From NCBI GenBank assembly GCA_946482565.1, contig CAMLSB010000026.1, positions 1-16,495 of the forward strand: 16,495 bases of DNA, in the 5' to 3' direction. The notes under the pieces were generated by a model, which saw only the letters and a program-made list of their open reading frames with translations, searched no databases and was not told where the DNA came from. Every line of letters begins with the position of its first letter. Position 1 is the first letter of the stretch. This DNA comes from an uncultured Lysobacteraceae bacterium (lineage in GTDB: Bacteria > Pseudomonadota > Gammaproteobacteria > Xanthomonadales > Xanthomonadaceae). Positions 1,997 through 16,216 of the stretch are shown here, piece by piece. A program made the translations under genes and the position numbers.

Positions 1997-2724
1997 GCGG
2001 CGCCACGGACGAAGCGGCCGGCGTCGGTGTCGGCGCCGCGGCGCCGTTGCGGCAGCGGCTGCTCGCCGAGTTCCTCGGCACGGCGCTGCTGCTGGCGGCG
2101 GTCGTCGGCTCCGGGATCATGGGCGTCGCGCTGTCGCGCGGGAACGACGGCGTCGCACTGCTTGCCAACGCGGGCGCGACGGCGGCGATCCTGTTCGTGC
2201 TGATCGTCGTGCTCGGCCCGGTCTCCGGCGCGCACTTCAATCCGGTGGTCACGCTGGCGGCCCGCTTCGACCGCGGCCTCGGCAATCGCGAGGCGGCGGC
2301 CTACATCGCCCTCCAGCTGATCGGAGCGGTGGCCGGGGTGCTGCTCGCGCATGCGATGTTCGGCCAGGCGCTCTGGCAGCCCGGCGAGCACGCGCGCACC
2401 GGTCTCGGGCAATGGCTCAGCGAGGCGGTGGCGACGTTCGGCCTCGTCCTGGTGATCCAGCTCGGCGCACGCTGCAAGCCCGAGGCGGTCGCCGCGCTGG
2501 TCGCGGCCTACATCTTCGCTGCGTACTGGTTCACGGCAAGCACGTCGTTCGCGAACCCCGCGGTCACGCTGGCGCGCGCGCTCACCGCAAGCTTCTCCGG
2601 GATCCGGCCCGGCGACGTGCTGGCGTTCGTCCTCGCGCAGGGCCTGGGTGCGGCCGGCGGCTGGGCGACCGCTCGCGGCCTGGTGCCGGCTGGCCGACGG
2701 CGCGTGCGCAGTTCACGGGGCTAG
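1993..2724 (+). CDS. aqpS: AqpS-like aquaglyceroporin (MIP family)
   Basis: The GTG start overlaps the arsC stop and gives 243 residues, a normal MIP length with about six membrane spans and two half-helices. The first signature is SGAHFNPVVTLAARF, with NPV at 84-86 instead of NPA. The second is SFANPAVTLARALT, with NPA at 188-190. Val191 occupies the position where most aquaporins have the selectivity-filter Arg, and I recall this substitution in the ars-linked AqpS group. In Sinorhizobium, AqpS together with ArsC gives resistance by letting arsenite run downhill out of the cell. The lack of a pump gene here fits that mechanism. The stop TAG shares the palindrome CTAG (2721-2724) with the stop of the convergent lipoprotein gene, leaving no space for a terminator. 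Confidence 0.87.
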   Translation: MSGATDEAAGVGVGAAAPLRQRLLAEFLGTALLLAAVVGSGIMGVALSRGNDGVALLANAGATAAILFVLIVVLGPVSGAHFNPVVTLAARFDRGLGNREAAAYIALQLIGAVAGVLLAHAMFGQALWQPGEHARTGLGQWLSEAVATFGLVLVIQLGARCKPEAVAALVAAYIFAAYWFTASTSFANPAVTLARALTASFSGIRPGDVLAFVLAQGLGAAGGWATARGLVPAGRRRVRSSRG

Positions 2725-3806
2725 TCGGCCCTCGCCATGGAAGCGGGTTCTCCGATCCCGAAGTGGGCGAATGCCTGCTCCCGGGTCATCGGCTCGAGCC
2801 GGTCGATCGCTTCCTGCACGATCTCGCCGCGCGAGCGCCGCATCCCGGGCCGATACCACCGCGAGAGCGCGGCGTCCGCACCGATGTGGTTGGACACCTC
2901 GTCTTCCTTGCGGAATGCCGACATCGGGGCCACGACGACCTGCGCCACTTCCACCGCCCACGAGGCGAACCTCGACGCGCCCGGAATGGCCGTGAGCGGA
3001 TTGCTCAAGGTCGCCATGACGTGCTTCAGGTCGAGCCATCCCGCGCGCCTGGTATAGACGTAGCGCTGCCCCTCCGGCAGATGCCGGCCAGTCTTGCCCA
3101 CGAGCCGGTCGTGCCAGTCCGATGCGGCCAGCGCGGCATCGATCGAACCGGCGATCGAGGCAGGCTCCGCATATTCCTCCAGGTTGCCGAGGTCCGACCA
3201 ACTCGGCCGCTCCGCATCGTCCTTGCCCGGCGAGGATGCGGTCGCGCACGAATGTCCCTGCACGATGCGGATCCCCGCGGGCGTGCGTCCCCCGTCGATG
3301 GCGCTCATGCCGCACTCCGGCAGGAAGTAGGTCGTCTCGCCCGTCGAACGCGCGATGCCGGTGGTGCGGTCCTCGATCGCGGGATCGCCACCGACCGGTT
3401 CGAAGGCAGGATCCTGGCCCAGGAACAGGCGCAGCGAGAATTTATTCGCCCCTCCCGCCGAGACCTCGAACTGCTGCTGCACGAGCGGACGCGACTCCGG
3501 GTGCTTCGCGTAGCCGATGGCCAGCACGTGCTTGCCCGGCGCGAGGAAAAGCGTGGACTTGCCCTTCGGCGGAAGCATCGCCACCGCATGGCCGTCGACG
3601 ACGAGCATGGTCCGCATCTTCAGCCCCACGTGGCCGCCTTCGCGCACGATGCTCACCGGGAGCGGCCTGTCCGGCGCCGGCGCGAACAGCTCCGGCGCCA
3701 TCACCTGGGCGGGCTCGATCTCGCGCGCGTCCGTGAAAGGCACGTGCCGGGTCGTGGTGGCGCATGCGGAAAGGGCCAGCAGGACGGGAACCAGCAATCT
3801 CTTCAT
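2721..3806 (-). CDS. Uncharacterised lipoprotein, 361 aa
   Basis: The start at 3806 gives MKRLLVPVLLALSAC, a textbook type II signal peptide with lipobox LSAC and lipidated Cys15. Ala at +2 suggests outer-membrane sorting. Residues about 48-130 (PVSIVREGG, MLVVDGHAV, LFLAPGKHVLAIGY, FEVSAGGANKFSLR) look like a small beta domain of the DUF2846/PEGA kind. The C-terminal half contains YTRRAGWLDLKHV and RKEDEVSNHIGADAALSRW, faintly reminiscent of DUF4056 proteins, but I cannot place it firmly. The start overlaps the flippase stop by four bases (ATGA), making it the last gene of the leftward lipid operon. A periplasmic or outer-membrane role in handling the operon's product is an inference. No function is assigned. 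Confidence 0.85.
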   Translation of the reverse strand: MKRLLVPVLLALSACATTTRHVPFTDAREIEPAQVMAPELFAPAPDRPLPVSIVREGGHVGLKMRTMLVVDGHAVAMLPPKGKSTLFLAPGKHVLAIGYAKHPESRPLVQQQFEVSAGGANKFSLRLFLGQDPAFEPVGGDPAIEDRTTGIARSTGETTYFLPECGMSAIDGGRTPAGIRIVQGHSCATASSPGKDDAERPSWSDLGNLEEYAEPASIAGSIDAALAASDWHDRLVGKTGRHLPEGQRYVYTRRAGWLDLKHVMATLSNPLTAIPGASRFASWAVEVAQVVVAPMSAFRKEDEVSNHIGADAALSRWYRPGMRRSRGEIVQEAIDRLEPMTREQAFAHFGIGEPASMARAD

Positions 3807-4840
3807 CGGAGCGACGCCTCGGCTTCGGGGGATGGGGCAATGGACCAATCGATGCCGCCGGGCTGGTCGCCGGGCCGCGAGCGGATCCGCGATGGGCGCC
3901 TCGCGAACACCAGCAGCGATGCGCCGAGCATCGCGAGGAAGTTGGCCAGCCACAGCAGCGAGAACGCGAGCGCCTGCGCATCGCTCGCACCGAGCGTGGC
4001 CAGCGCCCAGATGAGCGCGGCCTCGCGCGTGCCGAAGCCGGCGACGCTCAGCGGCAGCGATGCGATCGTCGTGCTCGTGGCGATCGCGGCATAGAGCAGG
4101 AAGGGGTTGACGTTGATGGCGACCGCGCGCGCGAGCAGCATGACCTGAAGGACCGCGACAGCCTGCGAGGCGACCGACAACGCGAGCGCCATCGCCATCG
4201 TGCCTGCGGTCGCGGGCGGGAGCGGATCGCCGCCGGCATCGGCGGCGGATTCCTGCCCGAATCGCCGCAGCAGCCTGTGCACCAGGAACTCGACGGCGGA
4301 CAGCATCCAGCGCGGACGCAGCGAAACGGCCAGCAACGCCAGTCCGAGCACGAACAGGCCCGCCCGGATGAGCGCCAGTCCCGGCACGTGCCCGGCCAGG
4401 CCGGCCACGGCGCCGAACGTCGCGACCAGCAGGAGCGTCGGCGCGAGGTCGAAGGCCCGGTCCAGGGCAACACTGTAGGCGGCAGCGGCGAATCCCCGCG
4501 TGCGGTCGCGGATCCACCAGACGCGGGCGACCTCGCCCAGCTTCGCCGGGCTCACCAGGCCGAGGAAGAAACTGGCGCCATACACATCGAGCAGTTCGCG
4601 CCACGCGAGCCGCCGGCCCAGCGAACCCAGGATCAGGTTCCAGCGCCATGCCCGGATCGCGATCATGCAGAACGTCAACAGGATCGCGCCCAGCGCGGGC
4701 AGCACGCGGATGCTGGCCAGGTGCGCCGGGAACCGGCCGGCGAGTTCCAGGCGGCTGCACGCGAACCAGGCGACCGCCACGCCGAGCGCGAGGCGCCATG
4801 CGCCGGAACGCAAGCCGATCCTCGCGCGCTCATGCAGCAT
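3803..4840 (-). CDS. UPF0104 / LPG-synthase-TM-type membrane protein (putative lipid flippase)
   Basis: This 345-residue polytopic membrane protein has about eight hydrophobic segments. It has two hallmarks of the PF03706 fold: GLVSPAKLGEVARVWW (SPAKLGE at 97-103) and LPLSVAGFGTREAAL (AGFGTRE at 267-273). The fold is known from the flippase half of MprF and from other lipid or isoprenoid-phosphate translocators. There is no catalytic GNAT-like lysyltransferase half, so this is the transport module alone. ATG 4840 was chosen because it gives MLHERARIG before the first span and overlaps the PAP2 stop by 11 bases. The C-terminus overlaps the next gene by four bases. The neighbours CdsA and PAP2 point to translocation of a phospholipid or lipid-phosphate across the inner membrane. 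Confidence 0.85.
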   Translation of the reverse strand: MLHERARIGLRSGAWRLALGVAVAWFACSRLELAGRFPAHLASIRVLPALGAILLTFCMIAIRAWRWNLILGSLGRRLAWRELLDVYGASFFLGLVSPAKLGEVARVWWIRDRTRGFAAAAYSVALDRAFDLAPTLLLVATFGAVAGLAGHVPGLALIRAGLFVLGLALLAVSLRPRWMLSAVEFLVHRLLRRFGQESAADAGGDPLPPATAGTMAMALALSVASQAVAVLQVMLLARAVAINVNPFLLYAAIATSTTIASLPLSVAGFGTREAALIWALATLGASDAQALAFSLLWLANFLAMLGASLLVFARRPSRIRSRPGDQPGGIDWSIAPSPEAEASLR

Positions 4841-5558
4841 CCAGCCGCTCCTCCATCGTCCTGCACGCAATGAGGCCGCCGGCCATCCCGACGTAGGCGC
4901 CGGCGACGATGTCGGCGACGAAATGCGTATTGGTGAGCAGCAGGCAGGCGATCGTGCAGGCGGCCGCGGCCGCGATCGGCGCGCGCGCGCGCGGATACAG
5001 CCTGCACAGCGGCAGCGCGAGCACGAGGACGATGATCGTCGTCCCCGAAGGGAAGGCCTGGAACGCCTTGATCCCGCCGCCGAACGCATGGAACGCGCTA
5101 TTGCCGTCGTTGAGGTATCCATGGCTCCGGAGCGCGCAGTCCAGCTTCGACGCCGGGCCTGGATCGGCGACGTCGCGCGGCCACGCGCGCCCGAACATGC
5201 GCTTGAGCATGTCCTTCACCGCCGCGCACGCCAGCAAGCCGGCGCAGAGCACGAACCACGCACGCTCCTGCGGACCCGCGAGGCGACCGAGCCGGCGCAG
5301 GGCATAGGCGAAGACGAACAAGCCGGCGAGGGGCAACGCAACGATCGGCATGCTCATTGGCCACAGCATCCACGCGTGCGAGTCCAGCCCTTGCGCATGG
5401 ATCCAGCGGGCGACGGGAAGGTCCACCCAACGGATGCAGGCGAGGCTGAGCAGGGCCGCGAGCGGCGCCCCCCAGGCGATCATCCGCGCCGAGCGGCGCC
5501 ATGCGCGGTGCTGGCGATCGCTGGCGGCGGGATGCTGGTGAGCTTGCATGTCGGACAT
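4830..5558 (-). CDS. PAP2-superfamily membrane phosphatase with altered motif 2
   Basis: This 242-residue integral membrane protein has five or six spans. Motif 1 is LKRMFGRAWPRD, with Lys119 but Trp126-Pro127 where most family members have Arg-Pro; I recall a PAP2 subgroup with GR-T-WP. Motif 2 is AFPSGTT at 168-174, so the usual PSGH histidine is Thr173. Motif 3 is NTHFVADIVAGAYVG, keeping the nucleophile His212 and Asp216. PAP2 enzymes dephosphorylate phosphatidate, phosphatidylglycerophosphate or isoprenyl diphosphates, and some transfer the phosphate instead. Loss of the acid His raises doubt about normal phosphatase turnover. ATG 5558 was chosen; an in-frame Met at 5549 is an alternative. 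It lies 18 bases after cdsA. Confidence 0.85.
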   Translation of the reverse strand: MSDMQAHQHPAASDRQHRAWRRSARMIAWGAPLAALLSLACIRWVDLPVARWIHAQGLDSHAWMLWPMSMPIVALPLAGLFVFAYALRRLGRLAGPQERAWFVLCAGLLACAAVKDMLKRMFGRAWPRDVADPGPASKLDCALRSHGYLNDGNSAFHAFGGGIKAFQAFPSGTTIIVLVLALPLCRLYPRARAPIAAAAACTIACLLLTNTHFVADIVAGAYVGMAGGLIACRTMEERLDAA

Positions 5559-5576
5559 GGCGCCTGGCCCTCGGGT

Positions 5577-6452
5577 TCAATGGAGGAAAAGCTGGATCGC
5601 CGCGAACACCGGCAGCGCGGCGAGCATCGAATCCATGCGGTCGACGGCACCGCCATGGCCGGGCAACAGCGCGCCGCTGTCCTTGACCTTTGCGTGCCGC
5701 TTCATGAGGCTGGCCACCAGGTCGCCGGCGACACCGGACGCGAGGGCCACCATCGCCGCCGCGAACACGTGTACCGGCCGGTCGAGCGCCGGGCCCAGCG
5801 CGAACAGGACGAAGCCCGCGGTCGCCGCGGTGAGCGAAAAGGCGACCAGCAACACGCCCCAGTTCTTGTACGGGTTCACCTGCGGCGCGAGCAGCCGCCC
5901 GGCCGGCAACATCACCGCGTGCCGGCCCAGGAGGTAGCACAGCGAATCCAGCAGGCACACCAGCCCGATCATGAGCAGCAGCAGGAGCCTGCCGTTCGCC
6001 CTGCCGGCGAACCAGGCGATCGCGGCCACCATGGACAGCGCGAGCAGGATCCCGATCGCGGCCTTGGCGACGACGACCGGGATGGCCGCCCGCTCGCCGA
6101 GCCGTGCGTTCCCGAGCCATGCGGGCGCCAGTGCCCACCATCCCGCGCACGCGAAGATCCAGCCATGCCGCCAGCCGCCCGCATCGCCGCAGGTGGCGAT
6201 GGCGACGCAGGCGAATGCGGCCAGCAGCAACGACCGCAGCGGACGCGAGGCGATCCCGCTCAATGCCAGCCACTCCCACAGCACCAGCAGCGCGAGCACG
6301 CCCGCGCCGAGCGCGAGGCCCGCGGGGCGGAGCCACGACACCAGCGCGATCGCGGCCGGGACCAGGATCGCGCTCGTCGCCAGGCGCGGCGCAAGATCAC
6401 GGCCGAAACCGCCGGTGACGGGCCTGGCGGTACTGCACTCCCCTACGTCCAT
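5577..6452 (-). CDS. CDP-diglyceride synthetase-type phosphatidate cytidylyltransferase (CdsA family)
   Basis: From ATG 6452 the protein has 291 residues and about eight membrane spans. Residues 248-274 hold the family signature: SLMKR, KVKDSG, LLPGHGG and DRMDS, with only one signature position (Ala after HGG) off the consensus. CdsA makes CDP-diacylglycerol from phosphatidate and CTP, the activated donor for phospholipid head-group attachment. The housekeeping cdsA normally sits between uppS and dxr in proteobacteria. Here it lies between a tiny membrane protein gene and PAP2, so it is probably a second, pathway-specific copy. The start overlaps the stop of the upstream small gene by 10 bases. 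Substrate identity is inferred from family only. Confidence 0.88.
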
Positions 6453-6574
6453 GACACCGACCAGCGAAGGAACGCGACGGTGCCTGCCACCACGATGAGG
6501 GCGAACACGATGCAGCCGAAGATGTCGAGCAGGTCGCGCGATTTCGGGCTCAACGCAGGAACCCCCGCGCACAT
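6443..6574 (-). CDS. Small single-span membrane protein between metX and cdsA
   Basis: Translation from ATG 6574 gives 43 residues. A TTG at 6553 that overlaps the metX stop (TTGA) would give 36 residues, starting before [11 protein letters not shown]. Both share a hydrophobic segment [18 protein letters not shown] flanked by Arg/Lys on one side and RWSVSWT at the end, consistent with one transmembrane helix. The metX gene ends at 6550 and cdsA starts at 6452, so the ORF exactly fills the gap with overlaps at both ends, the pattern of a real operon gene. I do not recognise a family. It may be a small subunit or regulator for the CdsA-like enzyme. Confidence 0.6.
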
Positions 6575-7629
6575 GCCTCGATCGCCGCCGACTCGACGAG
6601 GAAACCATCGTGGCCGTACGTCGAATCGATCAGCGCCATCCGCGCCCCGGGAATCGCCCGCGCGATCGCTTCCTGTTCGGCGGGCGGGAACAGGATGTCG
6701 CTCCGGATTCCCGCCACGAGCACGCGCGAGCGGATCCGCGCCAGCGCCGCCGCCGCCGATCCACGACCGCGACCGACGTCGTGGCTGTCCATCGCCTTCG
6801 TCAGCGTCCAGTAACTCCACGGATCGAAGCGGTTCGCGAGCTTGCGGCCCTGGTGGCGGAGGTAGCCGCTGGCCGCGAATCCGTCGCACAACGGCAGCGG
6901 GTCGGACTGCGTGCTGCGGAAAGCCTCGTAGCCACGGTAAGTGAGCATCGCGATGGCGCGCGCCGCTTCCAGGCCGGCCAGACCGTCACGGCACGCATCG
7001 CCGCCCAGCGTGCTATCGGCTTCCAGCGCCATGCGCTGCGCTTCGTTGCACGCGATGCCCCAGGGGGAATGACGCGCGTTCGTCGCCAGCAGCACGAGGT
7101 TGTCGAACCGGTCGGGTTCCGCGCACGCCCACTCGAGCGCCTGCTGGCCCCCCATGGATCCGCCGATGCCCAGGCGCACGCGCTCCACGCCGAGGTGCAT
7201 GAGCAGCACACGGTGTGCCGCGACGATGTCACGCATGGTGATGGCGGGGAATCGCCGGCCATACCGTTGCCCGGTGGCGGGATCGATGCTTGCAGGCGAC
7301 GACGTGCCGCAGCACGAACCCAGCATGTTGGCGCAGACGATGAAATCGCGCTCCGGATCGAGCAGCCGCCCGGGGCCGGCCAAGCCGGACCACCATTCCT
7401 GGACACGCGAGCTGCCGGTCAGCGCATGGAAGACCCAGACCGCGTTGTCCCGGGCCGGCGACAGCCTGCCCGCAGTCGTGTAGGCGATCCGCAGCTGCCG
7501 CAGCGATCCACCGCCCTCGAGCACGAACGCGTCGTCCAGCTCGAGCGTGCGCGTTTGCCAGGCGGCCGTATCGTCGCTCCCGCGAAGTGTCGCGGGCGGA
7601 CGCGGAAGCGTCGATGCTTCCGCGTTCAC
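6550..7629 (-). CDS. metX: MetX-family homoserine O-acyltransferase (Bacteroidota-like variant)
   Basis: The GTG start at 7629 overlaps the upstream stop (GTGA) and gives 359 residues, normal for MetX. The alpha/beta-hydrolase triad is visible: Ser158 in [14 protein letters not shown], Asp311 in [10 protein letters not shown], and His340 in STYGHDGF. The oxyanion region is VFHALTGSS. The family O-acylates homoserine (acetyl- or succinyl-CoA) as the first committed step to methionine; some members acylate serine or natural products. The wording [30 protein letters not shown] and [13 protein letters not shown] matches what I recall of Bacteroidota MetX better than the gammaproteobacterial type. 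No metB/metY/metZ partner is nearby, so a role in the lipid locus is possible. Confidence 0.85.
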
Positions 7630-8621
7630 GCGCTTGCCCCGGCGCGCATCCGCGCCTTCCCGGCGAGGTAATCGGCCGCGTGCGTGCGCTTGGCCGCGGG
7701 CTGGGTTCCGGACGGACGCTCCACCCGCGTCTGCTGTTCCCCGAGCACGCGCAGCAGCGACAGCTGGTTCGCCACCGCTTCGGAAAAAGGCCTCGCCAGC
7801 GCGGCGCACAGCGCCAGCGCACGCGGCGGCAGCGAAAGGATCCGCACACGCCTGCCCAGGATGCGCGAATACAGCGTCGCCACGTCGCGCCAGGACAGCT
7901 GTTCCGGGCCCGTGACGTACAGGACTCGCCGGGAGGCGCGCGCGTCGCCGATCGAAGACACCAGGCATTCGGCGACGTCCCGCACCGCCACGAACGCGTG
8001 GCGGCGGTCGGCCGGTCCGGGAACGACGGCCACGCCCCAGCGCTCGATGGTCTGGCCGAAAAGCGCGCGCAACGCAGCGGTGGCGCCCCGCGCCCGCGAG
8101 AGCGTGGCGGCGGGCTCGCCGAGGAGCGGGATCCTGCTGCCCATGAGCGCGAAATAGTCGTCCATGAACGGCGTGCTGCGCACCACCGTGTAGTCCAGCG
8201 AGGAGGCCTCCAGCATCTCCTCGCAGGCTGCCTTCATGCGCAGCGTGGGCACCGTCGCGAGGTAATCGCGGGTGTACGGCATCGCGATGGAGACGAACAG
8301 CAACCGCGGTACGGCCGCGGCCGTTGCGGCATCGACCAGGTTGCGGTAACCCTCGCCCTCGTCGCGGTCGAAGCTGTAGCGGCCGCGCGGGAACACGACG
8401 GTCGCGGTGGCGATGACGGCGTCGATGCCGTCGCACGCCGATGCCAGGCTCGCCGCGTCGCGCAGGTCGCCGAAAGCGAGCTCGATGCCGTCGCCGTGCA
8501 GGTGCGCATGCCGCGAGCCCGGGCGCACGAGCGCGCGCACGCGATGGCCCGCGGCGATGGCGACGCGGATCACGTCCGTGCCGAGCTGGCCGGTGGCACC
8601 GACCACGAGGATGCTTGTCAT
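7626..8621 (-). CDS. NAD(P)-binding protein, atypical SDR / NmrA-like
   Basis: This 331-residue cytoplasmic protein has an N-terminal Rossmann fold: MTSILVVGATGQLGTDVIR with the GATGQLG glycine motif at 8-14, then RALVRPGSR, a typical NADP-phosphate-binding end of strand 2, and FGDLRD. The YxxxK catalytic pair of classical SDRs is not in a clear place, as usual for the NmrA/atypical SDR group. The C-terminal half (HAFVAVRDVAECL, VLYVTGPEQLSWRDVATLYSRILGR) follows the family pattern for redox-sensing or isomerase/reductase members. ATG 8621 is preceded by AGGGAAGG at eight bases. The stop overlaps the metX start by four bases. The substrate is not predictable from sequence. Confidence 0.85.
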   Translation of the reverse strand: MTSILVVGATGQLGTDVIRVAIAAGHRVRALVRPGSRHAHLHGDGIELAFGDLRDAASLASACDGIDAVIATATVVFPRGRYSFDRDEGEGYRNLVDAATAAAVPRLLFVSIAMPYTRDYLATVPTLRMKAACEEMLEASSLDYTVVRSTPFMDDYFALMGSRIPLLGEPAATLSRARGATAALRALFGQTIERWGVAVVPGPADRRHAFVAVRDVAECLVSSIGDARASRRVLYVTGPEQLSWRDVATLYSRILGRRVRILSLPPRALALCAALARPFSEAVANQLSLLRVLGEQQTRVERPSGTQPAAKRTHAADYLAGKARMRAGASA

Positions 8622-8653: not shown

Positions 8654-10588
8654 CTAACCGCCGGCGAGGAATGCGACGCCGGGGCGCGGCGCGGCGGATG
8701 CCCCGCGCGTCGGCCAGCCCACGCGCAGCAGTGCCACCGGCGTCTCGCCCTCGGCGGCGCCGAACATCCGCAGCACCCCGGCCCGGCCTTCGTCGAAACC
8801 GAGCGGGAAGTCCAGCGGCTGGCACGCCACCCCGCGCCGGGTGAATTGCATCCAGGTGCGCATCAGCGTCCTGCCACCGTCCAGGCAGGCCTGCGCGCCA
8901 GCCGAATCCGCGGTGACCAGCACGAAGCCGCCGCTGCGCGCGATGCAGCGCGCAGCATTCGCGGCCATCGCATGCCCGAGCCCGAGCCGCCCCACGACCT
9001 TGCGCAGCGGCGCGCTGGCCCTCAGCAGCCGGAGCGCGAGCGCTTCGGCCCGACCCAGCGCGAGGCCCCGCGGCGTCATGCCCGAACCCGACGCCCGCTC
9101 CTCGCGTTCGCCGAAGCGCAGGTGATCCAGCAGTTCGGCCAGGTAGTCGTCGCGCCGGAACAGCCGCAGCGCGCCTTGCGCCGTGAGCGCGCGCAGCGTC
9201 TTCCGGCACGGTTGCGCGAAGCGGACGTGCGTGCCCGGCAGCGCGGCGCCGGCCAGGCACGCGCTCGCGAGCGCGTCGGCCACGTGCACGCGCTGGTACG
9301 GATGCCGGTTCGTGGCACGCCGGTGCAACAGGCCCAGGTTGCGCGCGAACCGCGCTTCGTGCAGGCCGCGCACGTGCAGCGTGCCGACGGCGCCGTCGCG
9401 CCCGTGATCCGGGAGCGGGGCGAACTCGACGTCGGCGATGGACGCCGCCGCCTCGATCGCGCAACCGAGACTGGCCAGCGCACCGCGCCCTTCGGGATCG
9501 GCGCACGGCAGGATGCGCTTCGGCTCGAGCGCGAGCGATACCCGGTCGCCCCGCACGGACAACCGCCAAGGCCGCGCGTTGTGCGGGGACGGAGCCAGCG
9601 CCATCGCGCCGATGGCCTCGCGCACCGCCGGCGGGAGGGCTGCACCGTCGCGCGGCGCGACCTGCGACGCGGCGACGGCCGGTGCAGGCGCGCGTCGCGA
9701 CGTGCGCACCGCTTCCACGAGGCGCATCGGGATGGCCGCGTATGCTCGCAACGCCGGCCACGAAGTCCGCATCGCCATGTGCGTGTCGAACGAGACCACC
9801 TTGGGCACCGGCCGGCCCGCGAGCAGGTCCACCGCGCAGCGGCTGGCCAGCGCGCCCATCGCTTCGACGCAGTACGCGACCTGGGGCCAGGGCCGCTTGC
9901 TGACGAGGCGTTCGCTGATGATCGGCAGGAAGTCGGCCGGGAAATGCCGGTATCCCAGCCACGCCAGGCATTCCGCGAAGCGGTGTTCGCGGTGTGCCTG
10001 CTCGCTCGCCTTGCCGTGGAAGGGCCTCGAGCCCGGCCGGCGGTAATCGAAGACGTAGAGCACGGCCTTGCCGCCGAAATCCATGCCCGCCATCACCGGG
10101 ATGCGGTTGGCGCAGGCATGCGCGTGGACCAGGTATTTCTCGAGGGGTGCCGCGCCGGCGTCGATGCCGTCGAACACCAGGTGCACGCCATCGATCGCAT
10201 CCGCGACGTTCTGTTCCGTGATCCCTTCCTCGAGCACGCGCGTCTCGCAGTGGGGGTTGATGGCGCGCGCGCGCGCGCCCAGCACCCTCGCCTTGTTGCT
10301 CCCCACGTCCGACAGGTAGCAGGCCTGCCGGTTGATGTTGGTCAGGTCGAAGTCCTCGGGGTCGGCGAGCACCAGCGAGGCGACGCCGAGGCGGACCAGC
10401 GGTTCCACCGCGCTTCCGCCCACGCTGCCGCAACCGGCGACGAGCACCCGCGCGGATTGCAGCAGGAACTGCTCGCGCGACGAAACGACATCGCGATTGC
10501 GGTCGATCCTCAGCCGTTCCGCGGCCAGGAATTCGTCCGTGCGGCTTTCCCGCCTGCCGGCGGCGAAGGTGTCGGCGATGCTATCCAT
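8654..10588 (-). CDS. ThiF/E1-like adenylyltransferase fused to a nitroreductase-like domain (Rv1355c/MoeY type)
   Basis: This 644-residue protein has two domains. Residues about 20-270 are an E1-like ThiF/MoeB/HesA domain. It has Arg30-NRDV, the nucleotide loop VLVAGCGSVGGSA at 48-60, ADPEDFDLTNINRQ at 75-88, the SNKA lysine (Lys99) and the FDGID acidic motif at 139-143. No CxxC zinc pairs and no obvious catalytic Cys were recognised. Residues about 310-640 resemble the Acg-like nitroreductase group: SPHNARPWRL at 334-343, PCADPEGRGALASLG, then VALLRVGWPTRG near the end. The same order occurs, as I recall, in mycobacterial Rv1355c (MoeY). The first domain should adenylate a carboxylate; the second may bind FMN. 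It starts eight bases inside the GNAT-like gene, so the two are coupled. The substrate is unknown. Confidence 0.85.
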   Translation of the reverse strand: MDSIADTFAAGRRESRTDEFLAAERLRIDRNRDVVSSREQFLLQSARVLVAGCGSVGGSAVEPLVRLGVASLVLADPEDFDLTNINRQACYLSDVGSNKARVLGARARAINPHCETRVLEEGITEQNVADAIDGVHLVFDGIDAGAAPLEKYLVHAHACANRIPVMAGMDFGGKAVLYVFDYRRPGSRPFHGKASEQAHREHRFAECLAWLGYRHFPADFLPIISERLVSKRPWPQVAYCVEAMGALASRCAVDLLAGRPVPKVVSFDTHMAMRTSWPALRAYAAIPMRLVEAVRTSRRAPAPAVAASQVAPRDGAALPPAVREAIGAMALAPSPHNARPWRLSVRGDRVSLALEPKRILPCADPEGRGALASLGCAIEAAASIADVEFAPLPDHGRDGAVGTLHVRGLHEARFARNLGLLHRRATNRHPYQRVHVADALASACLAGAALPGTHVRFAQPCRKTLRALTAQGALRLFRRDDYLAELLDHLRFGEREERASGSGMTPRGLALGRAEALALRLLRASAPLRKVVGRLGLGHAMAANAARCIARSGGFVLVTADSAGAQACLDGGRTLMRTWMQFTRRGVACQPLDFPLGFDEGRAGVLRMFGAAEGETPVALLRVGWPTRGASAAPRPGVAFLAGG

Positions 10589-11498
10589 GGGTCTCCGAGC
10601 GCATGGCGGATCCGGGCGTCGCGCCCGGTGGAGGCGAAGCTGCGCGGCGGGCGTCCGGGACGGCGCGCCCAGCTCCCCGCAGCACCGCCAGGTAGTAGCG
10701 CGCCAGCGCCCGCACGGCTTCCCGGCGCGTGGGGCGCACGACGATCACCATGGCGTCGCCGCGGTCGACGTCGACGTGCTCGCGCCAGTACGCCGCGACT
10801 TCGGGCTCGACGACGCGCGCCAGGTTCTTGCCGCCGTAAAGGCTCTTCCCGTAGCAGCCCCGGATCACCGAGCAATCGCCCGCGAACGGCCTGGCGGGCG
10901 AAAGCTCGCGCGCGACGAACCCGGCGACGCGCAGGCCGCCCGCTTCGTCGCGCGCGCCCGGCGCACCGATGCCGGGGAAGACCGAACGCCTGGAAGCCGC
11001 CTGCGCGAGCCGGTAGACCACGGGATTCTGCGTCCTGAAGGCGCAGGGCGCAGGCAGCAGGAACCGCTTGAAGCACATGAAGATGTACTCGTGGACGAGC
11101 ATCTCCCCTAACGTGTATCCGCCCGCGCCGGAGCGGAGCGCGCGTGGCCGCACGTTGAGCGTGTCCACGTAAAGGACCTTGCGGCGGCCCTTCCGCATCC
11201 AGCGCACGCCGGTCCAGCCCGCGAACGCGCCGTCCAGGTGCAGTGTCCAGAGTTCGTCGACCGTCTCGAAGTAATCGGAACGGCCGTTCCAGTAGTGCGC
11301 GGTGTCGGAGCGGTAGATCGCGTCCGTCACTTGCGAGAACTGCGCGAGCAGGTCGCGCTGCAGGCCGGGGTCCAGGCGACTGGCGGGCTTGCGCAGCCGC
11401 AGGAAGACGAAGCGCCCGCGGCGGATCCGGCGGGCGCCGGCGTGGCGCAGCGCATCGAAAATGAGCAGCGTTTCGCTGCCCGTACGTGCTTCATCCAT
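10581..11498 (-). CDS. GNAT-like acyltransferase of unknown specificity
   Basis: ATG 11498 gives 305 residues. The central part reads like a GNAT acyl-CoA binding core. It has strand LWTLHLDGAFAGWTGVRW, then RKVLYVDTLNVRPRALRSGAGGYTLGEMLVHEY at about 108-140 (motif A position), followed by FRTQNPVVYRLA, a pattern seen in GNAT-like proteins. A LuxI or FeeM signature was not found. The C-terminal tail is Ala/Pro-rich and probably disordered. It overlaps the ThiF-nitroreductase gene by eight bases, which suggests that an acylated compound is handed to the adenylating enzyme. It starts 23 bases past the T tract of an intrinsic terminator, with no clear promoter of its own. Family assignment is moderate and the substrate is unknown. 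Confidence 0.6.
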   Translation of the reverse strand: MDEARTGSETLLIFDALRHAGARRIRRGRFVFLRLRKPASRLDPGLQRDLLAQFSQVTDAIYRSDTAHYWNGRSDYFETVDELWTLHLDGAFAGWTGVRWMRKGRRKVLYVDTLNVRPRALRSGAGGYTLGEMLVHEYIFMCFKRFLLPAPCAFRTQNPVVYRLAQAASRRSVFPGIGAPGARDEAGGLRVAGFVARELSPARPFAGDCSVIRGCYGKSLYGGKNLARVVEPEVAAYWREHVDVDRGDAMVIVVRPTRREAVRALARYYLAVLRGAGRAVPDARRAASPPPGATPGSAMRSETHG

Positions 11499-11521
11499 GA
11501 TTGAGCGCGATGTCCGTATCG

Positions 11522-11547: not shown

Positions 11548-11559
11548 GCGTTGCAGGTT

Positions 11560-12510
11560 TCAGGATAGCACGCTGTCCCGGCCGGACGACAAGGCCGCGG
11601 CGCGGGGAGCCAGGTGGCCGGCGAGGAAGGCCGCGGTTTCCGCCAGCGCTGCCCTCGCCTCCGGCACGACGCTCGCGAACGTGGGAAACGCATGCAGTTG
11701 GCCCGGCCATGCGCGCAGCACCGACGGCACGCCGGCCGCCCGCGCGCGCTGCTGCAACCGCCGCGAATCGTCCAGCAGGAGTTCGCCGCTCGCCGCGTGC
11801 AACAGCAGTGGCGGCAAACCCTCCAGGCACGCGAACAACGGCGAAACCCGGGGATCCTGCAGGCTTTCCCGCCCTGCATAAGCGCGGGCCGCAGCGCGGA
11901 GGAAGCCGCGGGTCAGCATGCTTTCGCCGCCGCGACCGTCGCGCGGCGCGTCTCCCGAAAGCGTCAGGTCGACCCATGGGGAGAAGCAGGCGATCGCGGC
12001 GGGCGACGGCGCTCCCAGCGACCGCAATCCGATCGCCGCGGCCAGCGCCAGGTTGCCGCCCGCCGAATCGCCGGCCAGCGCGATCGACTGCGCGGGTACG
12101 CCGGCGGCCAGCAGGCCTTCGTACGCGGATATCGCATCCAGCAGCGCGGCCGGGAACGGATGCGACGGCGCGAGCCGGTACTCGACGAGGAGCACGCGCG
12201 CACCGGACTCGTGCGACAACCGCCATGCGGTGTCGCGATGCGTGCGCGCCGATCCTGCGACGAACGCCCCGCCATGCAGGTACACGATGACCGGCGCGCC
12301 GTGCGGATCGGCGGCGTCGACCCACTGGCACGGCACGCCGCCGACGCTCGCGGGGGCGACGCGGACGTGCCGCGGCAGCGGCAGCAGGGAGGCACCGCGC
12401 TCCAGCGTGCGATCGAGCAGCACCGCCGACTCCGGGAAGCCGAGGCGCGCCATGCGCGCCTGCAGCGCGCAGCGCACGGCGGCCGCGCAGAGCCCGGACT
12501 GCCAGCTCAC
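11560..12510 (-). CDS. HSL-family (family IV) alpha/beta-hydrolase esterase
   Basis: The GTG start at 12510 overlaps the desaturase stop (GTGA) and gives 316 residues, normal for the hormone-sensitive-lipase group. Visible parts are the oxyanion motif YLHGGAF (HGG 79-81), VEYRLAPSHPFPAAL, the nucleophile elbow AGDSAGG with Ser149, the acid in ELLLDDSRRL (Asp247 or Asp248) and His273 in GQLHAFP. Such enzymes hydrolyse short or medium acyl esters in the cytoplasm. Coupled to the desaturase, it may release or trim acyl chains for the lipid pathway, but the family is catalytically broad. Transcription ends at the hairpin just downstream. Confidence 0.9.
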   Translation of the reverse strand: MSWQSGLCAAAVRCALQARMARLGFPESAVLLDRTLERGASLLPLPRHVRVAPASVGGVPCQWVDAADPHGAPVIVYLHGGAFVAGSARTHRDTAWRLSHESGARVLLVEYRLAPSHPFPAALLDAISAYEGLLAAGVPAQSIALAGDSAGGNLALAAAIGLRSLGAPSPAAIACFSPWVDLTLSGDAPRDGRGGESMLTRGFLRAAARAYAGRESLQDPRVSPLFACLEGLPPLLLHAASGELLLDDSRRLQQRARAAGVPSVLRAWPGQLHAFPTFASVVPEARAALAETAAFLAGHLAPRAAALSSGRDSVLS

Positions 12511-13550
12511 GGTTGCTGCGCGACCGGAGCGGACCCGTCGGCATCCAGCCCGAAGCGCTGCTGGAACTGCCGGCGATGGTCGTGATAACCGGAAACGATG
12601 CCGAGCCTGTGCATGAGCCGGATCAGCAGGAACGGCACGTCGATCTGGCCGGGAAGGAAGGCCGTGTTGGCCGAAGCGCGGAACGCATGGTGGTTGTTGT
12701 GCCATTCGCCGGCCAGGTAGCCGTAGATGCGCTGGTTCAGCGCCAGCGACTTGCGGTCGAAGTCCCGGCCGTCCACCTGATTCGGGCGCTCGGGCGTGCC
12801 GTGGCCCCTGAAGTTGAAATCGCGGACCACCACGTGCCACGAGAACTGCGCCGCGAGCCAGGCCATCAGCAACGGCATTCCCCCCGCGAGGCCCCAGACG
12901 ATCCCCCATGACAGGTTGGCGAACACCCAGCGTGCCAGGTAATGCGGGATGTATTCGACGCAACCCCAGCGGCGGAACGAGGCATGGCTGGAGAACGGCA
13001 TCGACAGGTGCGCGAGGCGCGCCTTGAGCGCGGTGAACTGCTGTTCCGTGATGTCGGTGTCGACCTCGAAGTAGGAAGCGGTGTAGTTGCCGAGCCAACC
13101 CAGGTGCGGGCCGTTGGGATCGTCGTCGCCATCGGACCTGGTGTGGTGGACGTGGTGCACGAGCGCGTACGCTTCTTCCCGGTAACCCAGCGGGTTGAGC
13201 CACAGGCACAGCCGCGGATAGATCCTGCTGGAGAACGCGAATGCGCGATGGCTGCAGTACCGGTGGTACCAGACCGTGTTGGTGAAATTGGCGAGCACCG
13301 TGAACATCGCGAGGTACGCCAGCCCCGTTGCGGCATCGAGGTACTCGACGAAGAACAGGACGGCCGGGATCGCCATCAGCAGGTGGCTGCATTCGAAGGC
13401 GGCGTGCAGCGCGCGCCTGCGGTCGGCGAAGAAGTTCAGGGACCGCGCATACTGGCGCAATGCATCCCGGACGGTGACCTGCCGCCTGGTGCCGTCGGGC
13501 CCGCGCACTTCGTAGGCCCGCGGCAACAATTTCACGCACGACTCGACCAC
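12507..13550 (-). CDS. Membrane fatty-acid / acyl-lipid desaturase
   Basis: GTG 13550 was chosen because AGGGAGG (13565-13559) lies eight bases upstream; this gives 347 residues. Three histidine boxes of the di-iron desaturase superfamily are present: HRYCSH at 96-101, HHVHH at 132-136 and HNNHH at 284-288. Hydrophobic spans lie around 52-90 and 205-240, so it should sit in the inner membrane with the boxes in the cytoplasm. The family introduces cis double bonds (often delta-9) into acyl-CoA, acyl-ACP or lipid-bound chains using oxygen and electrons from ferredoxin or rubredoxin. It is the first gene of the leftward run and diverges from hom across a 169-bp gap. The substrate and regioselectivity cannot be read from sequence. 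Confidence 0.9.
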   Translation of the reverse strand: MVESCVKLLPRAYEVRGPDGTRRQVTVRDALRQYARSLNFFADRRRALHAAFECSHLLMAIPAVLFFVEYLDAATGLAYLAMFTVLANFTNTVWYHRYCSHRAFAFSSRIYPRLCLWLNPLGYREEAYALVHHVHHTRSDGDDDPNGPHLGWLGNYTASYFEVDTDITEQQFTALKARLAHLSMPFSSHASFRRWGCVEYIPHYLARWVFANLSWGIVWGLAGGMPLLMAWLAAQFSWHVVVRDFNFRGHGTPERPNQVDGRDFDRKSLALNQRIYGYLAGEWHNNHHAFRASANTAFLPGQIDVPFLLIRLMHRLGIVSGYHDHRRQFQQRFGLDADGSAPVAQQP

Positions 13551-13595
13551 GACGCGCACCTCCCTGTGGCGAAGGGGCGGCACGGTACCACGGAC

Positions 13596-13625
13596 TTGCC
13601 CGGGCGCGTAAGGCGTCGCTAGAAT
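13596..13625 (+). promoter_or_regulatory. sigma70-type promoter for the hom - HAD pair
   Basis: TTGCCC at 13596-13601 and TAGAAT at 13620-13625 are separated by 18 bp on the + strand, in the divergent gap between the desaturase and hom. Initiation near 13632 would leave a leader of about 88 bases before the TTG start. The leader contains a short ATG-TAG frame (13650-13685) and a GC-rich palindrome at about 13690-13699. I saw no equally good promoter on the minus strand for the desaturase. Confidence 0.6.
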
Positions 13626-13719
13626 CGCCGCTCTTGCGCGTCGAGGACGATGCGCCAACCCGGATCGCGCCACCAGGATCCGTAGAAGCCCCGCGCGGGC
13701 GTTGCTCAGGGAAGGCACG

Positions 13720-14847
13720 TTGGACATCGCGGCACAAGGCCATACCGTTTCCGGCGCCGGGCGCCGGGCGCTGCACGCGCGCAGGCTCTTCCTCCTCGGC
13801 AGCGGGGTCGTCGGCAGCGCTTTCGTCGAACACCACCGGCGCCATGGCGCCGCATTGCGGCTGCCGCCGATCGCGGGCATCGCGAATTCGCGGGGCTTCG
13901 CCATGGTGTCCGGCGATCCACTGGAAGCGCTGCAGCGCCTGAACCGCCTGCCGGGCGGGCTCGACGCGAGCTTCGACGCGGTCGCCCTGCATCCGGGCGA
14001 TGTCGTCGTCGATGCCACCGCCTCCTGCGCGCTCGCCGCGCAACACGCGGCATGGCTGGGCAGCGGCGTGGACGTGGTGACCGCGAACAAGATGGGGGCC
14101 GGCGGCAGCCTGGAATCCGCGCGCGCGCTCATGCGCGCCTGCGCGGCCACGGGAGCCGCCTACGGCGACAGCGCGACCGTGGGCGCGGGCCTTCCACTGC
14201 TCGCGACGCTCCGTCGCCTCGTCCGTGGCGGCGACGAGATCCTGCGGATCGAAGGCGTGCTTTCCGGATCGCTCGCGTGGCTTTTCGCCCGGTTCGATGG
14301 GGAAACGCCGTTTTCCGAACTCGTCGCGCTCGCCCAGGCGGCCGGGCTGACCGAACCCGATCCGCGCGTCGACCTGAGCGGCGAGGACGTGGTGCGCAAG
14401 CTGCTGATCCTGGCGCGAGCCGCCGGCATGCCGCTGGAACGCGAGTCATTGACCGTCGAAGGCCTTGTTCCGTCGCCGGGGACGCGGATTCCCGCTGTTG
14501 CGCAAGGCGGTTTCGCCTACCTGGATCCGGACCTCGCCGCGCGGCGCGCGGGCGCTGCCGCCAACGGCGAACAGCTCTGCTACGTCGGCTCGGTGGATGC
14601 CAGCGGCGGCACGGTCGGGCTGCAGCGGCTGCCGCGCGGCCACGCATTGCGTGGCGGCTGCGGGACCGATAACCGTGTCGCGATCTTCAGCAGCCGCTAC
14701 CGGGACCGGCCGCTGGTGATCCAGGGCGCCGGCGCAGGGCCGATGGTGACGGCCGCGGCGCTGCTCGACGATCTCATGGCGCTCCTCGAACGGCCCGTTC
14801 GCGCGTACATTCCCCCCCGGCACGAAAGATCGGTCGCCAATGCCTAA
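13720..14847 (+). CDS. hom: Homoserine dehydrogenase, stand-alone, no aspartokinase or ACT domain
   Basis: TTG 13720 was chosen because GAAGG (13711-13715) precedes it and no ATG lies before the Rossmann motif; it gives 375 residues. The N-terminal NAD(P) fold has LFLLGSGVVGSAF (GxGxxG at 27-32). It continues with VVVDATAS, the catalytic-lysine motif TANKMG (Lys124), TVGAGLPLL, LSGSLAWLF, and DPRVDLSGEDVVRKLLILAR with Asp214, Asp218 and Lys227. It ends with the GAGAGPMVTAAALLDDL cofactor loop. This resembles the dehydrogenase half of ThrA/MetL. It reduces aspartate semialdehyde to homoserine. Without an ACT domain it may escape threonine feedback. The stop overlaps the HAD gene by eight bases, which ties homoserine supply to a phosphatase. 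Confidence 0.9.
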   Translation: MDIAAQGHTVSGAGRRALHARRLFLLGSGVVGSAFVEHHRRHGAALRLPPIAGIANSRGFAMVSGDPLEALQRLNRLPGGLDASFDAVALHPGDVVVDATASCALAAQHAAWLGSGVDVVTANKMGAGGSLESARALMRACAATGAAYGDSATVGAGLPLLATLRRLVRGGDEILRIEGVLSGSLAWLFARFDGETPFSELVALAQAAGLTEPDPRVDLSGEDVVRKLLILARAAGMPLERESLTVEGLVPSPGTRIPAVAQGGFAYLDPDLAARRAGAAANGEQLCYVGSVDASGGTVGLQRLPRGHALRGGCGTDNRVAIFSSRYRDRPLVIQGAGAGPMVTAAALLDDLMALLERPVRAYIPPRHERSVANA

Positions 14848-15481
14848 CCTCGCGCTGTTCGACTTCGACGGCACCATCACCTCGAAGGACACCTTCACCG
14901 CATTCGTGCACTTCGCGATGGGCCCCGCCCGGCTGCTGCTCGGGAAAATCGTGCTGAGTCCGCTGATCGTCGGTTACAAGGCGGGCCTGGTGTCGGGCGC
15001 CGCCATCCGCACGAGCGTGTCGCGGTTCGGATTCGCCGGGCGGCGGGAATCCGCGTTGCGCGAAGCAGGCCTCGCGTTCGGCAGGGAGGTGCTTCCGCAG
15101 GTCGTACGGCCGGCGATGCTCGAGCGGATCCGCTGGCACCAGGCCGAAGGCGACCGCATCGTCGTCGTGTCCGCGTCGCTCGATGTCTACCTCGAGGCAT
15201 GGTGCCGAGAACACGGGCTGGAACTGGTCTGCACGGAACTGGAGTTCCGCGGCGGCCGCAGCACCGGCGGCTACCGCCGTGGCGACTGCAGTGGCGAGCG
15301 CAAGCTCCAGCGGATCCGCGAACGCTACGATCTCGCCCATTACCCGGAGATCTACGCCTACGGCGACACGCGCGAGGACCTGCCGATGCTCGCAGTCGCC
15401 CGCCACAAGTTCTACCGCGGGCGCCCGGTCACCGCGCGCGAGCTGGAAGACGCCTCAGACCACCACGCGCACCAGCACTGA
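14840..15481 (+). CDS. HAD-superfamily subfamily IB phosphatase
   Basis: This 213-residue soluble protein has all HAD motifs: FDFDGTIT with nucleophile Asp8 and acid Asp10, VVSASLD with Ser111, GERKLQRI with Lys155, and YGDTREDLPML with Asp176 and Asp180. The helical cap (residues 17-90) with FVHFAMGPARLLLGKIVLSPL is the IB type, like CicA and SerB relatives. It hydrolyses a phosphate ester; relatives act on phosphoserine or lysophospholipids. Coupled to hom by an eight-base overlap, it may act on a phosphorylated amino acid or a lipid phosphate. The C-terminal DHHAHQH is encoded inside a 27-bp tail-to-tail overlap with the convergent kinase-like gene and may be a by-product of that overlap. 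Confidence 0.9.
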   Translation: MPNLALFDFDGTITSKDTFTAFVHFAMGPARLLLGKIVLSPLIVGYKAGLVSGAAIRTSVSRFGFAGRRESALREAGLAFGREVLPQVVRPAMLERIRWHQAEGDRIVVVSASLDVYLEAWCREHGLELVCTELEFRGGRSTGGYRRGDCSGERKLQRIRERYDLAHYPEIYAYGDTREDLPMLAVARHKFYRGRPVTARELEDASDHHAHQH

Positions 15482-16216
15482 AAGCACCACGGGGCACGCC
15501 GCCGCCAGCAGCAGGTTGTCGAGGCCGCGCGGCGACAGCGCCTCCACTACCGCCGTGACCACGCCGTAGGCCAGCGCGGCCGCGATCGTCGTGACGGAAA
15601 GCCCGTGGTTTCCGGCGAGCATCGCCAACCCGACCGCGAATGCCACCAGCATCACCGTCGAGGAACCGGCGATGGACTTGGTGTTGTGGCGCTTCCACAA
15701 CGGATCCCGGATCCTGAAGGTGTTGCCGGCGCCGAACCGCAATCCCACCGGCTCGGCCAGCCCGTCGGCAAGGGCGACCGTGTAGAACGCGGCGCGCACC
15801 ATGTCCATCGGGAAAAGAAACGTGGACGCCGACAGCGCGAGGTTGAAGCTGACCAGCGGCAGGAAGAAGAAGAACCTGCTGTAGGGCGCGTCCCGCTGCC
15901 GGAGGCTGCCCGACACGATGCCGAAAAGCAGGGGGCGGGAGCTTGCGGCGGACGTCGCGTAGATCACGATCAGGCCGAGTGAACCCACGAGGATCGCCGG
16001 CAGGAGCTGGCGATCCGGCAGGAACGCGAGCAGCGGCAGGGTGATCAGCATGATGCCGACGTGGTTGAGCTTGCGGGAATACCCGTCCGCCCATTGCCAG
16101 CGCCGGCGGAGCGCGGTGGCGACGTTGCCGAGCACGAAGGTGCTGAGCACCAGGTAGGTGGCCACGCGCCACCAGGGAACCTCGTCGAACGCGAGCGTAG
16201 GGGTAGCCAGGAGCAT
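15455..16216 (-). CDS. Dolichol/phytol-kinase-like CTP-dependent membrane enzyme
   Basis: This 253-residue protein has about seven membrane spans. It shows the motif series of the polyprenol kinase / cytidylyltransferase-like family (VTE5, SEC59, archaeal geranylgeraniol kinase): SRKLNHVG (48-54), ALADGLAEPVGLRFG (148-162), NTKSIAGSS (178-186) and VVEALSPRGLDNLLLA (223-238). Members phosphorylate lipid alcohols with CTP; bacterial copies are often annotated as phosphatidate cytidylyltransferase. ATG 16216 precedes the first span directly. It converges on the HAD phosphatase with a 27-bp overlap and has no terminator. With CdsA it makes a second CTP-using lipid enzyme in the locus. Whether it acts as a kinase or a cytidylyltransferase cannot be decided from sequence. 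Confidence 0.8.
   Translation of the reverse strand: MLLATPTLAFDEVPWWRVATYLVLSTFVLGNVATALRRRWQWADGYSRKLNHVGIMLITLPLLAFLPDRQLLPAILVGSLGLIVIYATSAASSRPLLFGIVSGSLRQRDAPYSRFFFFLPLVSFNLALSASTFLFPMDMVRAAFYTVALADGLAEPVGLRFGAGNTFRIRDPLWKRHNTKSIAGSSTVMLVAFAVGLAMLAGNHGLSVTTIAAALAYGVVTAVVEALSPRGLDNLLLAAACPVVLSVLVRVVV

What the first reader, a model, noticed from the sequence alone, without database searches (positions are those of the whole stretch)
2721..16216. Candidate undescribed lipid-conjugate pathway mixing CTP-lipid enzymes with homoserine enzymes
One stretch holds a CdsA-type enzyme, a dolichol-kinase-like CTP enzyme, PAP2 and HAD-IB phosphatases, a UPF0104 flippase, a desaturase and an esterase. 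They are interleaved with homoserine dehydrogenase, a MetX acyltransferase, a GNAT-like protein and an E1-nitroreductase fusion. Most neighbours overlap, so co-expression is likely. Family roles suggest acyl-chain tailoring, phosphate activation with CTP, head-group supply and export. I infer a homoserine- or amino-acid-containing lipid. No CDP-alcohol phosphotransferase is seen in the window, so the joining step would lie in the ThiF/GNAT pair or elsewhere.
Basis: partly seen in the sequence, partly recalled or inferred. Interest (0 to 1): 0.8.

Follow-up and report, generated by a model that had tools for sequence, protein, structure and literature searches.

The report
Conserved lipid cluster with oxazolone-type enzymes
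This stretch holds a rare but conserved set of bacterial genes that pairs enzymes known elsewhere for making ring-closed fatty amino acids with a dedicated set of membrane-lipid enzymes, which points to an undescribed amino-acid lipid.

Summary
The named enzyme families are present at 2721-16216, just over half of the minus-strand junctions overlap, and no CDP-alcohol phosphotransferase was hit. Three other genomes (two Luteibacter, one of them named by inference, and one Lysobacterales assembly) each keep orthologues of 10 of the 13 window genes in one 19-22 kb cluster. All three clusters also carry a second PlsB (glycerol-3-phosphate acyltransferase) that separates from the ordinary PlsB in a tree. 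So this looks like a real, dedicated lipid pathway. Homoserine is not its conserved theme: homoserine dehydrogenase is missing from the three related clusters, and the MetX-like protein is a divergent extra copy. The GNAT-fold protein plus ThiF-nitroreductase fusion has the architecture of published oxazolone synthases (TrzAS, TyzACB, OxzAB): N-acylation of an amino acid, ATP-dependent ring closure, flavin-dependent desaturation. Best reading: a glycerolipid pathway built around an oxazolone-type module, making an N-acyl (dehydro)amino-acid lipid. How the two halves join is inferred. My paper searches listed nothing on the combination. Verdict: new variant of a known kind.

The parts
2721..3806 (-). 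predicted lipoprotein with lipobox-like LSAC near its start (361 aa); G237 orthologue matches DUF4056 just above cut-off
   Evidence: (36-38% in G001 and G237; none found in G002)
3803..4840 (-). flippase-like membrane protein, LPG_synthase_TM; TIGR00374 just under cut-off (345 aa)
   Evidence: orthologues in 3 of 3 related clusters
4830..5558 (-). divergent PAP2-fold protein (242 aa); PSGH reads PSG[T/S] and the RP of motif 1 reads WP in 4 of 4 orthologues
5577..6452 (-). CdsA-type CTP:lipid cytidylyltransferase (291 aa), C-terminal signature intact
   Evidence: orthologue beside PAP2 and flippase in G002 only
6443..6580 (-). possible 45-aa single-TM protein between CdsA and MetX (uncertain)
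   Evidence: no family match
6550..7629 (-). MetX/CefG-like alpha/beta-hydrolase acyltransferase (359 aa), triad kept
   Evidence: orthologues in 3 of 3 clusters
7626..8621 (-). NmrA-type SDR reductase (331 aa), next gene after the ThiF-nitroreductase
   Evidence: homologue in the same place beside a GNAT-ThiF-NTR set in L008
8654..10588 (-). TrzS-like fusion: ThiF adenylating/cyclising domain plus nitroreductase-superfamily flavin oxidase (644 aa)
10581..11498 (-). GNAT-fold candidate N-acyltransferase (305 aa), no family match by sequence
11560..12510 (-). hormone-sensitive-lipase-type esterase (316 aa); no orthologue in the three related clusters
12507..13559 (-). DesA-like fatty-acid desaturase with three histidine boxes (start uncertain, 13559 or 13583)
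   Evidence: 63-69% identity in 3 of 3
13702..14847 (+). homoserine dehydrogenase (start uncertain); not in the related clusters
14840..15481 (+). HAD-IB family phosphatase (213 aa)
   Evidence: orthologues in 3 of 3 clusters
15455..16216 (-). dolichol/phytol-kinase-like membrane protein (253 aa)
   Evidence: orthologues in 3 of 3 clusters

Best explanation
A rare, conserved lipid-biosynthesis cluster of Lysobacterales. The GNAT-fold enzyme N-acylates an amino acid. The ThiF domain of the fusion adenylates the carboxylate and closes an oxazolone ring, and its flavin domain desaturates it. The NmrA-type reductase and the MetX-like acyltransferase tailor or transfer the product. Dedicated lipid enzymes (PlsB paralogue in the relatives, CdsA in the window and G002, HAD-IB, divergent PAP2, dolichol-kinase-like CTP kinase, desaturase and hydroxylases) build and activate a lipid part, and the flippase-like protein and lipoprotein move it outward. 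The product is most likely an N-acyl (dehydro)amino-acid-bearing glycero(phospho)lipid. Shown: the gene set, its co-conservation, the private PlsB and extra MetX copies, the folds and key residues. Inferred: the substrates, the order of steps, and that the two halves are joined in one molecule.
Against: The lipid genes are not the same in all copies: CdsA is in the window and G002 only, PlsB is not in the window. The GNAT gene adjoins the fusion in the window but lies about 6-8 kb from it in the relatives (places) and is only 35-38% identical there. The fusion scores 160.5 bits against a cut-off of 476 for the Rv1355c family, so its substrate may differ. The GNAT protein has no FeeM or PF13444 match. 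CdsA scores 96.2 against 385 on the NCBIfam equivalog. The PAP2 protein lacks a catalytic histidine. No metabolite has been seen.
Confidence: 0.5

Rival explanations
1. A free N-acyl oxazolone or N-acyl dehydroamino acid is the end product (signal or antibiotic). The lipid genes only supply special acyl chains or protect and remodel the producer's own membrane.
For: The published TrzAS and TyzACB pathways end at the free oxazolone (OxzAB as told there). Secreted N-acyl tyrosine derivatives of Stieleria are reported as antimicrobial (PMC12856293 discussion). PlsB is not in the window, so it is not part of every copy.
Against: A private PlsB, a HAD-IB phosphatase, a CTP-kinase-like protein and a flippase-like protein in 3 of 3 relatives seem more than acyl supply needs.
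Confidence: 0.25
2. One reading: Hom supplies homoserine, MetX O-acylates it, CTP-lipid enzymes attach it.
For: Window hom overlaps HAD-IB by 8 bases. All 4 of 4 cluster MetX proteins keep the triad and the four active-site residues named in PMC6937278. The window MetX scores a little better against solved homoserine enzymes than against CefG. The relatives instead carry a weakly dioxygenase-like protein (HilA model, 26.9 bits against a cut-off of 500), which could supply another hydroxy amino acid.
Against: Hom is in 0 of 3 related clusters. CefG keeps the same T, R, Y and D with a non-homoserine acceptor, so the pocket is not diagnostic. MetX is below equivalog cut-offs.
Confidence: 0.1
3. 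The ThiF-nitroreductase works on something other than an N-acyl amino acid (for instance another ring closure, or a peptide), and the GNAT protein acylates a different amine.
For: The ThiF domain is close in fold to AclA, ThiF, MoeB, MccB and PaaA alike. Equivalog cut-offs are missed. GNAT substrate unknown.
Against: A ThiF domain fused to an Acg-type flavin oxidase with a nearby acyltransferase is the published pattern of oxazolone pathways. No carrier-protein family was hit in the window; small precursor-peptide genes were not searched for.
Confidence: 0.1

Closest known systems
TrzAS tryptazolone pathway (Rv1356c-Rv1355c and homologues; PMC12856293)
   Same: Acyltransferase gene beside a fused ThiF-cyclase/flavin-oxidase; ThiF-site aspartates kept; Acg 2ymv as closest flavin-domain structure
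   Different: 26-29% identity over about a third to half of the protein to plasmid-borne proteins named Rv1355c family and below the NCBIfam cut-off. It sits inside a cluster with lipid genes, whereas the paper describes trzAS as a gene pair adjacent to predicted cyclic-di-GMP genes in Mtb
TyzACB (M. tuberculosis) and OxzAB (P. rubra) tyrazolone pathways (PMC10404671)
   Same: GNAT/FeeM-type N-acyltransferase, ThiF cyclase, nitroreductase-superfamily desaturase
   Different: Separate or differently fused enzymes, free oxazolone product; the sections read name no PlsB, CdsA, lipid kinase or flippase set
[quoted passage not shown]
   Same: N-acyl dehydroamino acid chemistry predicted from the same three activities
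   Different: The section read names no dedicated glycerolipid enzymes
Ornithine-lipid-type aminolipids (OlsB/OlsA; review PMC11631085, passages read)
   Same: Amino acid N-acylated then carried as a membrane lipid; the relatives hold an FA_hydroxylase whose best NCBIfam model is OlsE, far below its cut-off
   Different: No PF13444 OlsB-type enzyme and no PlsC-type (PF01553) O-acyltransferase hit in the window; ThiF, nitroreductase and CTP enzymes are extra

Membership tests
TrzS-type oxazolone synthase | ThiF domain with ATP-binding and adenylation residues | tested here: met
   PF00899 E 1.2e-29; G52, G54, G57, D76, R87, K99, D140, D143 invariant in 34 of 34 rows. The roles of R87 and K99, and pairing D143 with E. 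coli ThiF D130 and TrzS D217, are by recalled motif
TrzS-type oxazolone synthase | fused flavin-dependent oxidase (nitroreductase superfamily) | tested here: met
   Acg 2ymv by profile (E 4.4e-18, positions 312-643 of 650) and by fold (rank 1, E 3.2e-13); PF00881 itself (20.6 vs 23.5) and NF047509 (134.9 vs 199) are below cut-off
TrzS-type oxazolone synthase | NCBIfam Rv1355c family score above cut-off | tested here: not met
   NF005901 160.5 bits vs 476
TrzS-type oxazolone synthase | residues R540 and Q651 of TrzS Msmeg | tested here: inconclusive
   Q590 is kept in 33 of 34 and R424, R428 in 34 of 34, but the Msmeg sequence was not at hand to map the numbers
TrzS-type oxazolone synthase | makes an oxazolone | not testable with these tools
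   needs an enzyme assay
N-acyl amino acid synthase (FeeM/TyzA/TrzA) | GNAT-type fold | tested here: met
N-acyl amino acid synthase (FeeM/TyzA/TrzA) | FeeM or PF13444 sequence match | tested here: not met
   0 Pfam families for the window protein and for the G001 orthologue at E up to 0.1
homoserine O-acetyltransferase MetX | Ser-Asp-His triad and T61, R227, Y234, D351 | tested here: met
   kept in 4 of 4 cluster proteins (residues from PMC6937278); also present in CefG, so not diagnostic
homoserine O-acetyltransferase MetX | equivalog score | tested here: not met
   TIGR01392 349.5 vs 500, NF001209 321.3 vs 331; note that none of the 7 control genomes that rang was over the TIGR01392 cut-off either
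CdsA | CTP_transf_1 domain and C-terminal signature | tested here: met
   PF01148 E 2.9e-33; GDL.ASL.KRHA.V..SG.LLPGHGG..DR.DS largely shared by window and G002 (signature recalled)
CdsA | NCBIfam equivalog score | tested here: not met
   NF008635 96.2 bits vs 385
PAP2 phosphatase | KX6RP, PSGH and SRX5HX3D motifs | tested here: not met
   PSG[T/S] and WP in 4 of 4; motif-3 H and D kept; motif definitions recalled

The most novel reading that the evidence does not exclude
The oxazolone is not the end product but an activated ester. The MetX/CefG-like Ser-His-Asp acyltransferase opens the ring with a hydroxyl of a dedicated glycerolipid or phospholipid made by the PlsB, CdsA and kinase set, giving a new class of membrane lipid that carries an N-acyl dehydroamino acid. 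This would be ring-opening coupling of a small-molecule E1 product to a lipid. In the window the hydroxy-amino-acid supplier would be homoserine dehydrogenase, in the relatives a dioxygenase.
Probability: 0.18. Interest if true: 0.85.

Novelty: new variant of a known kind. Interest (0 to 1): 0.6.

Why it matters
The physiological role of bacterial acyl-oxazolones is called a major unresolved question (PMC12856293, discussion). A cluster that ties an oxazolone-type module to private copies of lipid enzymes and a flippase-like protein gives a direct, testable hint that some of these products are built into or exported through membranes. It would also point to an undescribed amino-acid lipid class and to a dolichol-kinase-like family for which no Pfam or NCBIfam model was hit here.

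Tried and rejected
Homoserine as the conserved theme: rejected as a general reading after hom was found in 0 of 3 related clusters and elsewhere in those genomes. Defence-system reading of the ThiF domain: of 31 PADLOC families matched, the 25 shown are all E1-E2 models on the ThiF stretch (best 55.9 bits), and the other three proteins scanned matched none; not pursued. Chance neighbourhood of housekeeping lipid genes: rejected, because the cluster PlsB is a second copy and the cluster MetX an extra copy in 3 of 3 genomes. TrzA-type sequence similarity for the GNAT protein: an A3 profile against frames beside distant ThiF-NTR genes gave nothing at E under 0.1. In seven of those loci I recognised no acyltransferase neighbour by eye; they were not family-scanned. 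No conclusion. FeeM did not appear among the fold matches shown; that is inconclusive. Dolichol-kinase-like and GNAT proteins on plasmids: no match. Their profiles against PDB sequences: no match.

Papers: PMC12856293 (outline with abstract, sections 4, 7, 8, passages), PMC10404671 (outline with abstract, sections 5, 11), PMC12479983 (outline with abstract, section 6), PMC6937278, PMC9376091 and PMC11631085 (passages) were seen; all others only as listings. Searches for the combination listed no paper on it; only 8 of 139 papers were listed. The library lacks most subscription papers, and the original OxzAB paper was not seen: what I say of OxzAB comes from PMC10404671 and PMC12856293. AclA (9egb) is known here only by its PDB title; a paper search listed nothing on it among 6 of 305 papers shown.

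Dropped rows: A1 used 33 of the 69 hits plus the window; A3 used 6 of the 7 hits (the seventh is the window protein) plus three relatives; A4 used 38 of the 84 hits plus the window. In one search the kinase-like list was P0077-P0139 (63 of 84 hits); one of its unmatched rows, P0077, is from a genome that does hold the fusion (G237), so 17 is an undercount. The MetX tree used 8 of the 9 places plus the window, with untrimmed frames. The PlsB tree had two sequences read in the wrong frame and is superseded.
Full report
What is there. The window carries an arsenic-type gene group on the + strand at its left (AHSA1-like 145-645, ArsR-like 749-1099, glyoxalase-like 1096-1590, LMWP/ArsC-like 1613-1996, MIP channel 1984-2724; 'arsenic-type' is my reading) and, by eye, the end of a NADP-malic-enzyme-like frame at 16336-16495 (name recalled). 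Between them lies the finding. On the minus strand, reading away from 13559: DesA-like desaturase, HSL-type esterase, GNAT-fold protein, ThiF-nitroreductase fusion, NmrA-type reductase, MetX-like acyltransferase, a possible 45-aa membrane peptide, CdsA, PAP2-fold protein, flippase-like protein and a predicted lipoprotein. On the + strand: homoserine dehydrogenase and HAD-IB. On the minus strand again: the dolichol-kinase-like protein. From the coordinates, 7 of 10 junctions from lipoprotein to desaturase overlap if the small frame is counted, 5 of 9 if not. From the strands there are at least three transcription units, not one.

Is it conserved? Whole-genome searches at E up to 1e-60 found matches in 3 of 398 genomes of the order, 2 of 233 of the family of G001, 3 of 149 relatives of G237, 2 of 192 relatives of G003, one of these ThiF-only, 2 of 369 of the class, again one ThiF-only, and 0 of 234 of the family of G006. 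These samples overlap, only the best few candidates per genome were scored, and the profile holds proteins of G001 and G002. In G001, G002 and G237 the region was fetched, genes were called with a simple codon-usage script and compared. Each genome has orthologues of 10 of the 13 window genes (the 45-codon frame left out). Common to all three are flippase, PAP2, MetX-like, NmrA, fusion, GNAT, desaturase, HAD-IB and dolichol-kinase-like; the tenth is the lipoprotein in G001 and G237 and CdsA in G002. The ten span about 19 kb in G001 and G237 and about 21.5 kb in G002 (24.5 kb with its PlsB). Fusion-NmrA-MetX and PAP2-flippase keep their order. Homoserine dehydrogenase and the HSL esterase have no counterpart in these three clusters.

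Independent signs of co-occurrence. The dolichol-kinase-like profile rings in the same 3 of 398 genomes as the fusion and in none of the other 395; this profile was built from the window and those three, so only the absences inform. In a family of 9 around G002 it rings in G002 alone. In the protein database, 17 of 29 fusion hits among P0001-P0032 on contigs of 8 kb or more share an exact contig length with a dolichol-kinase-like hit, 0 of 36 more distant fusion hits do, and 17 of 37 kinase-like hits on such contigs pair up the other way; equal length is taken as the same contig. Of six GNAT homologues, P0073-P0076 sit on contigs whose length matches a fusion hit, and P0071 and P0072, on contigs of 2-3 kb, do not. 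Kinase-like hits in Cellvibrio, Acinetobacter pollinis, Nocardiopsis and Rathayibacter had no fusion hit of equal contig length, so the family probably also occurs without this fusion.

The extra genes in the relatives. The three clusters share genes absent from the window: a full PlsB, an SDR, an FA_hydroxylase-family protein, an FA_desaturase-family protein, a protein with weak Fe/2OG-dioxygenase similarity (WelO5, HilA, far below cut-offs), and a 134-aa unknown; G001 and G002 add an alpha/beta hydrolase, G001 and G237 an amidohydrolase. PlsB occurs twice in 3 of 3 genomes. The cluster copies are split from the ordinary copies with support 0.996, and all six keep HRSHXD. MetX-family matches occur three times in 3 of 3 genomes, and one split of support 0.998 parts the four cluster copies (window included) from the five copies elsewhere that were placed in the tree. 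A private PlsB and a private MetX-like enzyme argue for a dedicated lipid pathway.

The homoserine question. The window MetX-like protein keeps the triad and the four active-site residues of mycobacterial MetX, as do the three relatives (residue list from PMC6937278). But the G237 protein's best solved relative is CefG (E 4e-54, against 2.5e-47 for the best homoserine enzyme), which shares the short loop and the same T, R, Y and D. For the window protein the order is reversed by a small margin (1.4e-67 homoserine enzyme, 6.8e-64 CefG). The pocket therefore neither proves nor excludes homoserine. Hom homologues in the three genomes lie away from the cluster. One observation keeps homoserine alive for the window: its hom overlaps the conserved HAD-IB gene by 8 bases.

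How it most likely works. N-acylation of an amino acid (GNAT), ring closure and desaturation (fusion), reduction or other tailoring (NmrA), acyl transfer (MetX-like). In parallel: glycerol acylation (PlsB in relatives), CTP activation (CdsA where present), phosphorylation of a lipid alcohol by CTP (kinase-like, inferred from homologue names and recalled motifs), phosphate removal (HAD-IB), acyl-chain desaturation and hydroxylation, then movement across the membrane (flippase-like, lipoprotein). The divergent PAP2 protein, lacking the PSGH histidine and the motif-1 arginine in 4 of 4 orthologues, may be a transferase rather than a phosphatase. The joining of the two halves is my inference; the TrzS paper reports that methanol and ethanol open these oxazolones, which makes them plausible acyl donors.

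Novelty. Searches of the held paper library listed nothing on this combination. The module is of a known kind; the setting in a dedicated lipid cluster is the new variant. I score interest 0.6: the cluster is real, rare and testable, but the product is unknown.

Noticed in passing
window 145-2724 (+): An arsenic-resistance-like gene group (ArsR-like, glyoxalase-like, ArsC-like LMWP, aquaporin-type MIP) abuts the cluster's left end.
   Followed up: no
window 4830-5558 and orthologues in L087, L089, L092: PAP2-fold protein with PSG[T/S] instead of PSGH and WP instead of RP in 4 of 4 orthologues, motif-3 H and D kept: a divergent subfamily that may not be a phosphatase.
   Followed up: partly
L008 9282-13019: Deltaproteobacterial GNAT, ThiF, nitroreductase and NmrA genes in a row: a four-gene module with the NmrA reductase as fourth member.
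   Followed up: partly
L102/L115 (G002:C4:101437-103515): A MetX-like and a homoserine dehydrogenase match share one 759-aa open frame, apparently a MetX-Hom fusion; its MetX part has the same short loop as the window protein.
   Followed up: no
window 15455-16216; P0116, P0131, P0132, P0135: The dolichol-kinase-like family gave no Pfam or NCBIfam match and has members in Cellvibrio, Acinetobacter, Nocardiopsis and Rathayibacter, with no fusion hit of equal contig length in the lists at hand.
   Followed up: partly
window 6443-6580 (-): A possible 45-aa single-helix membrane peptide overlaps both CdsA and MetX-like genes; no family match.
   Followed up: no
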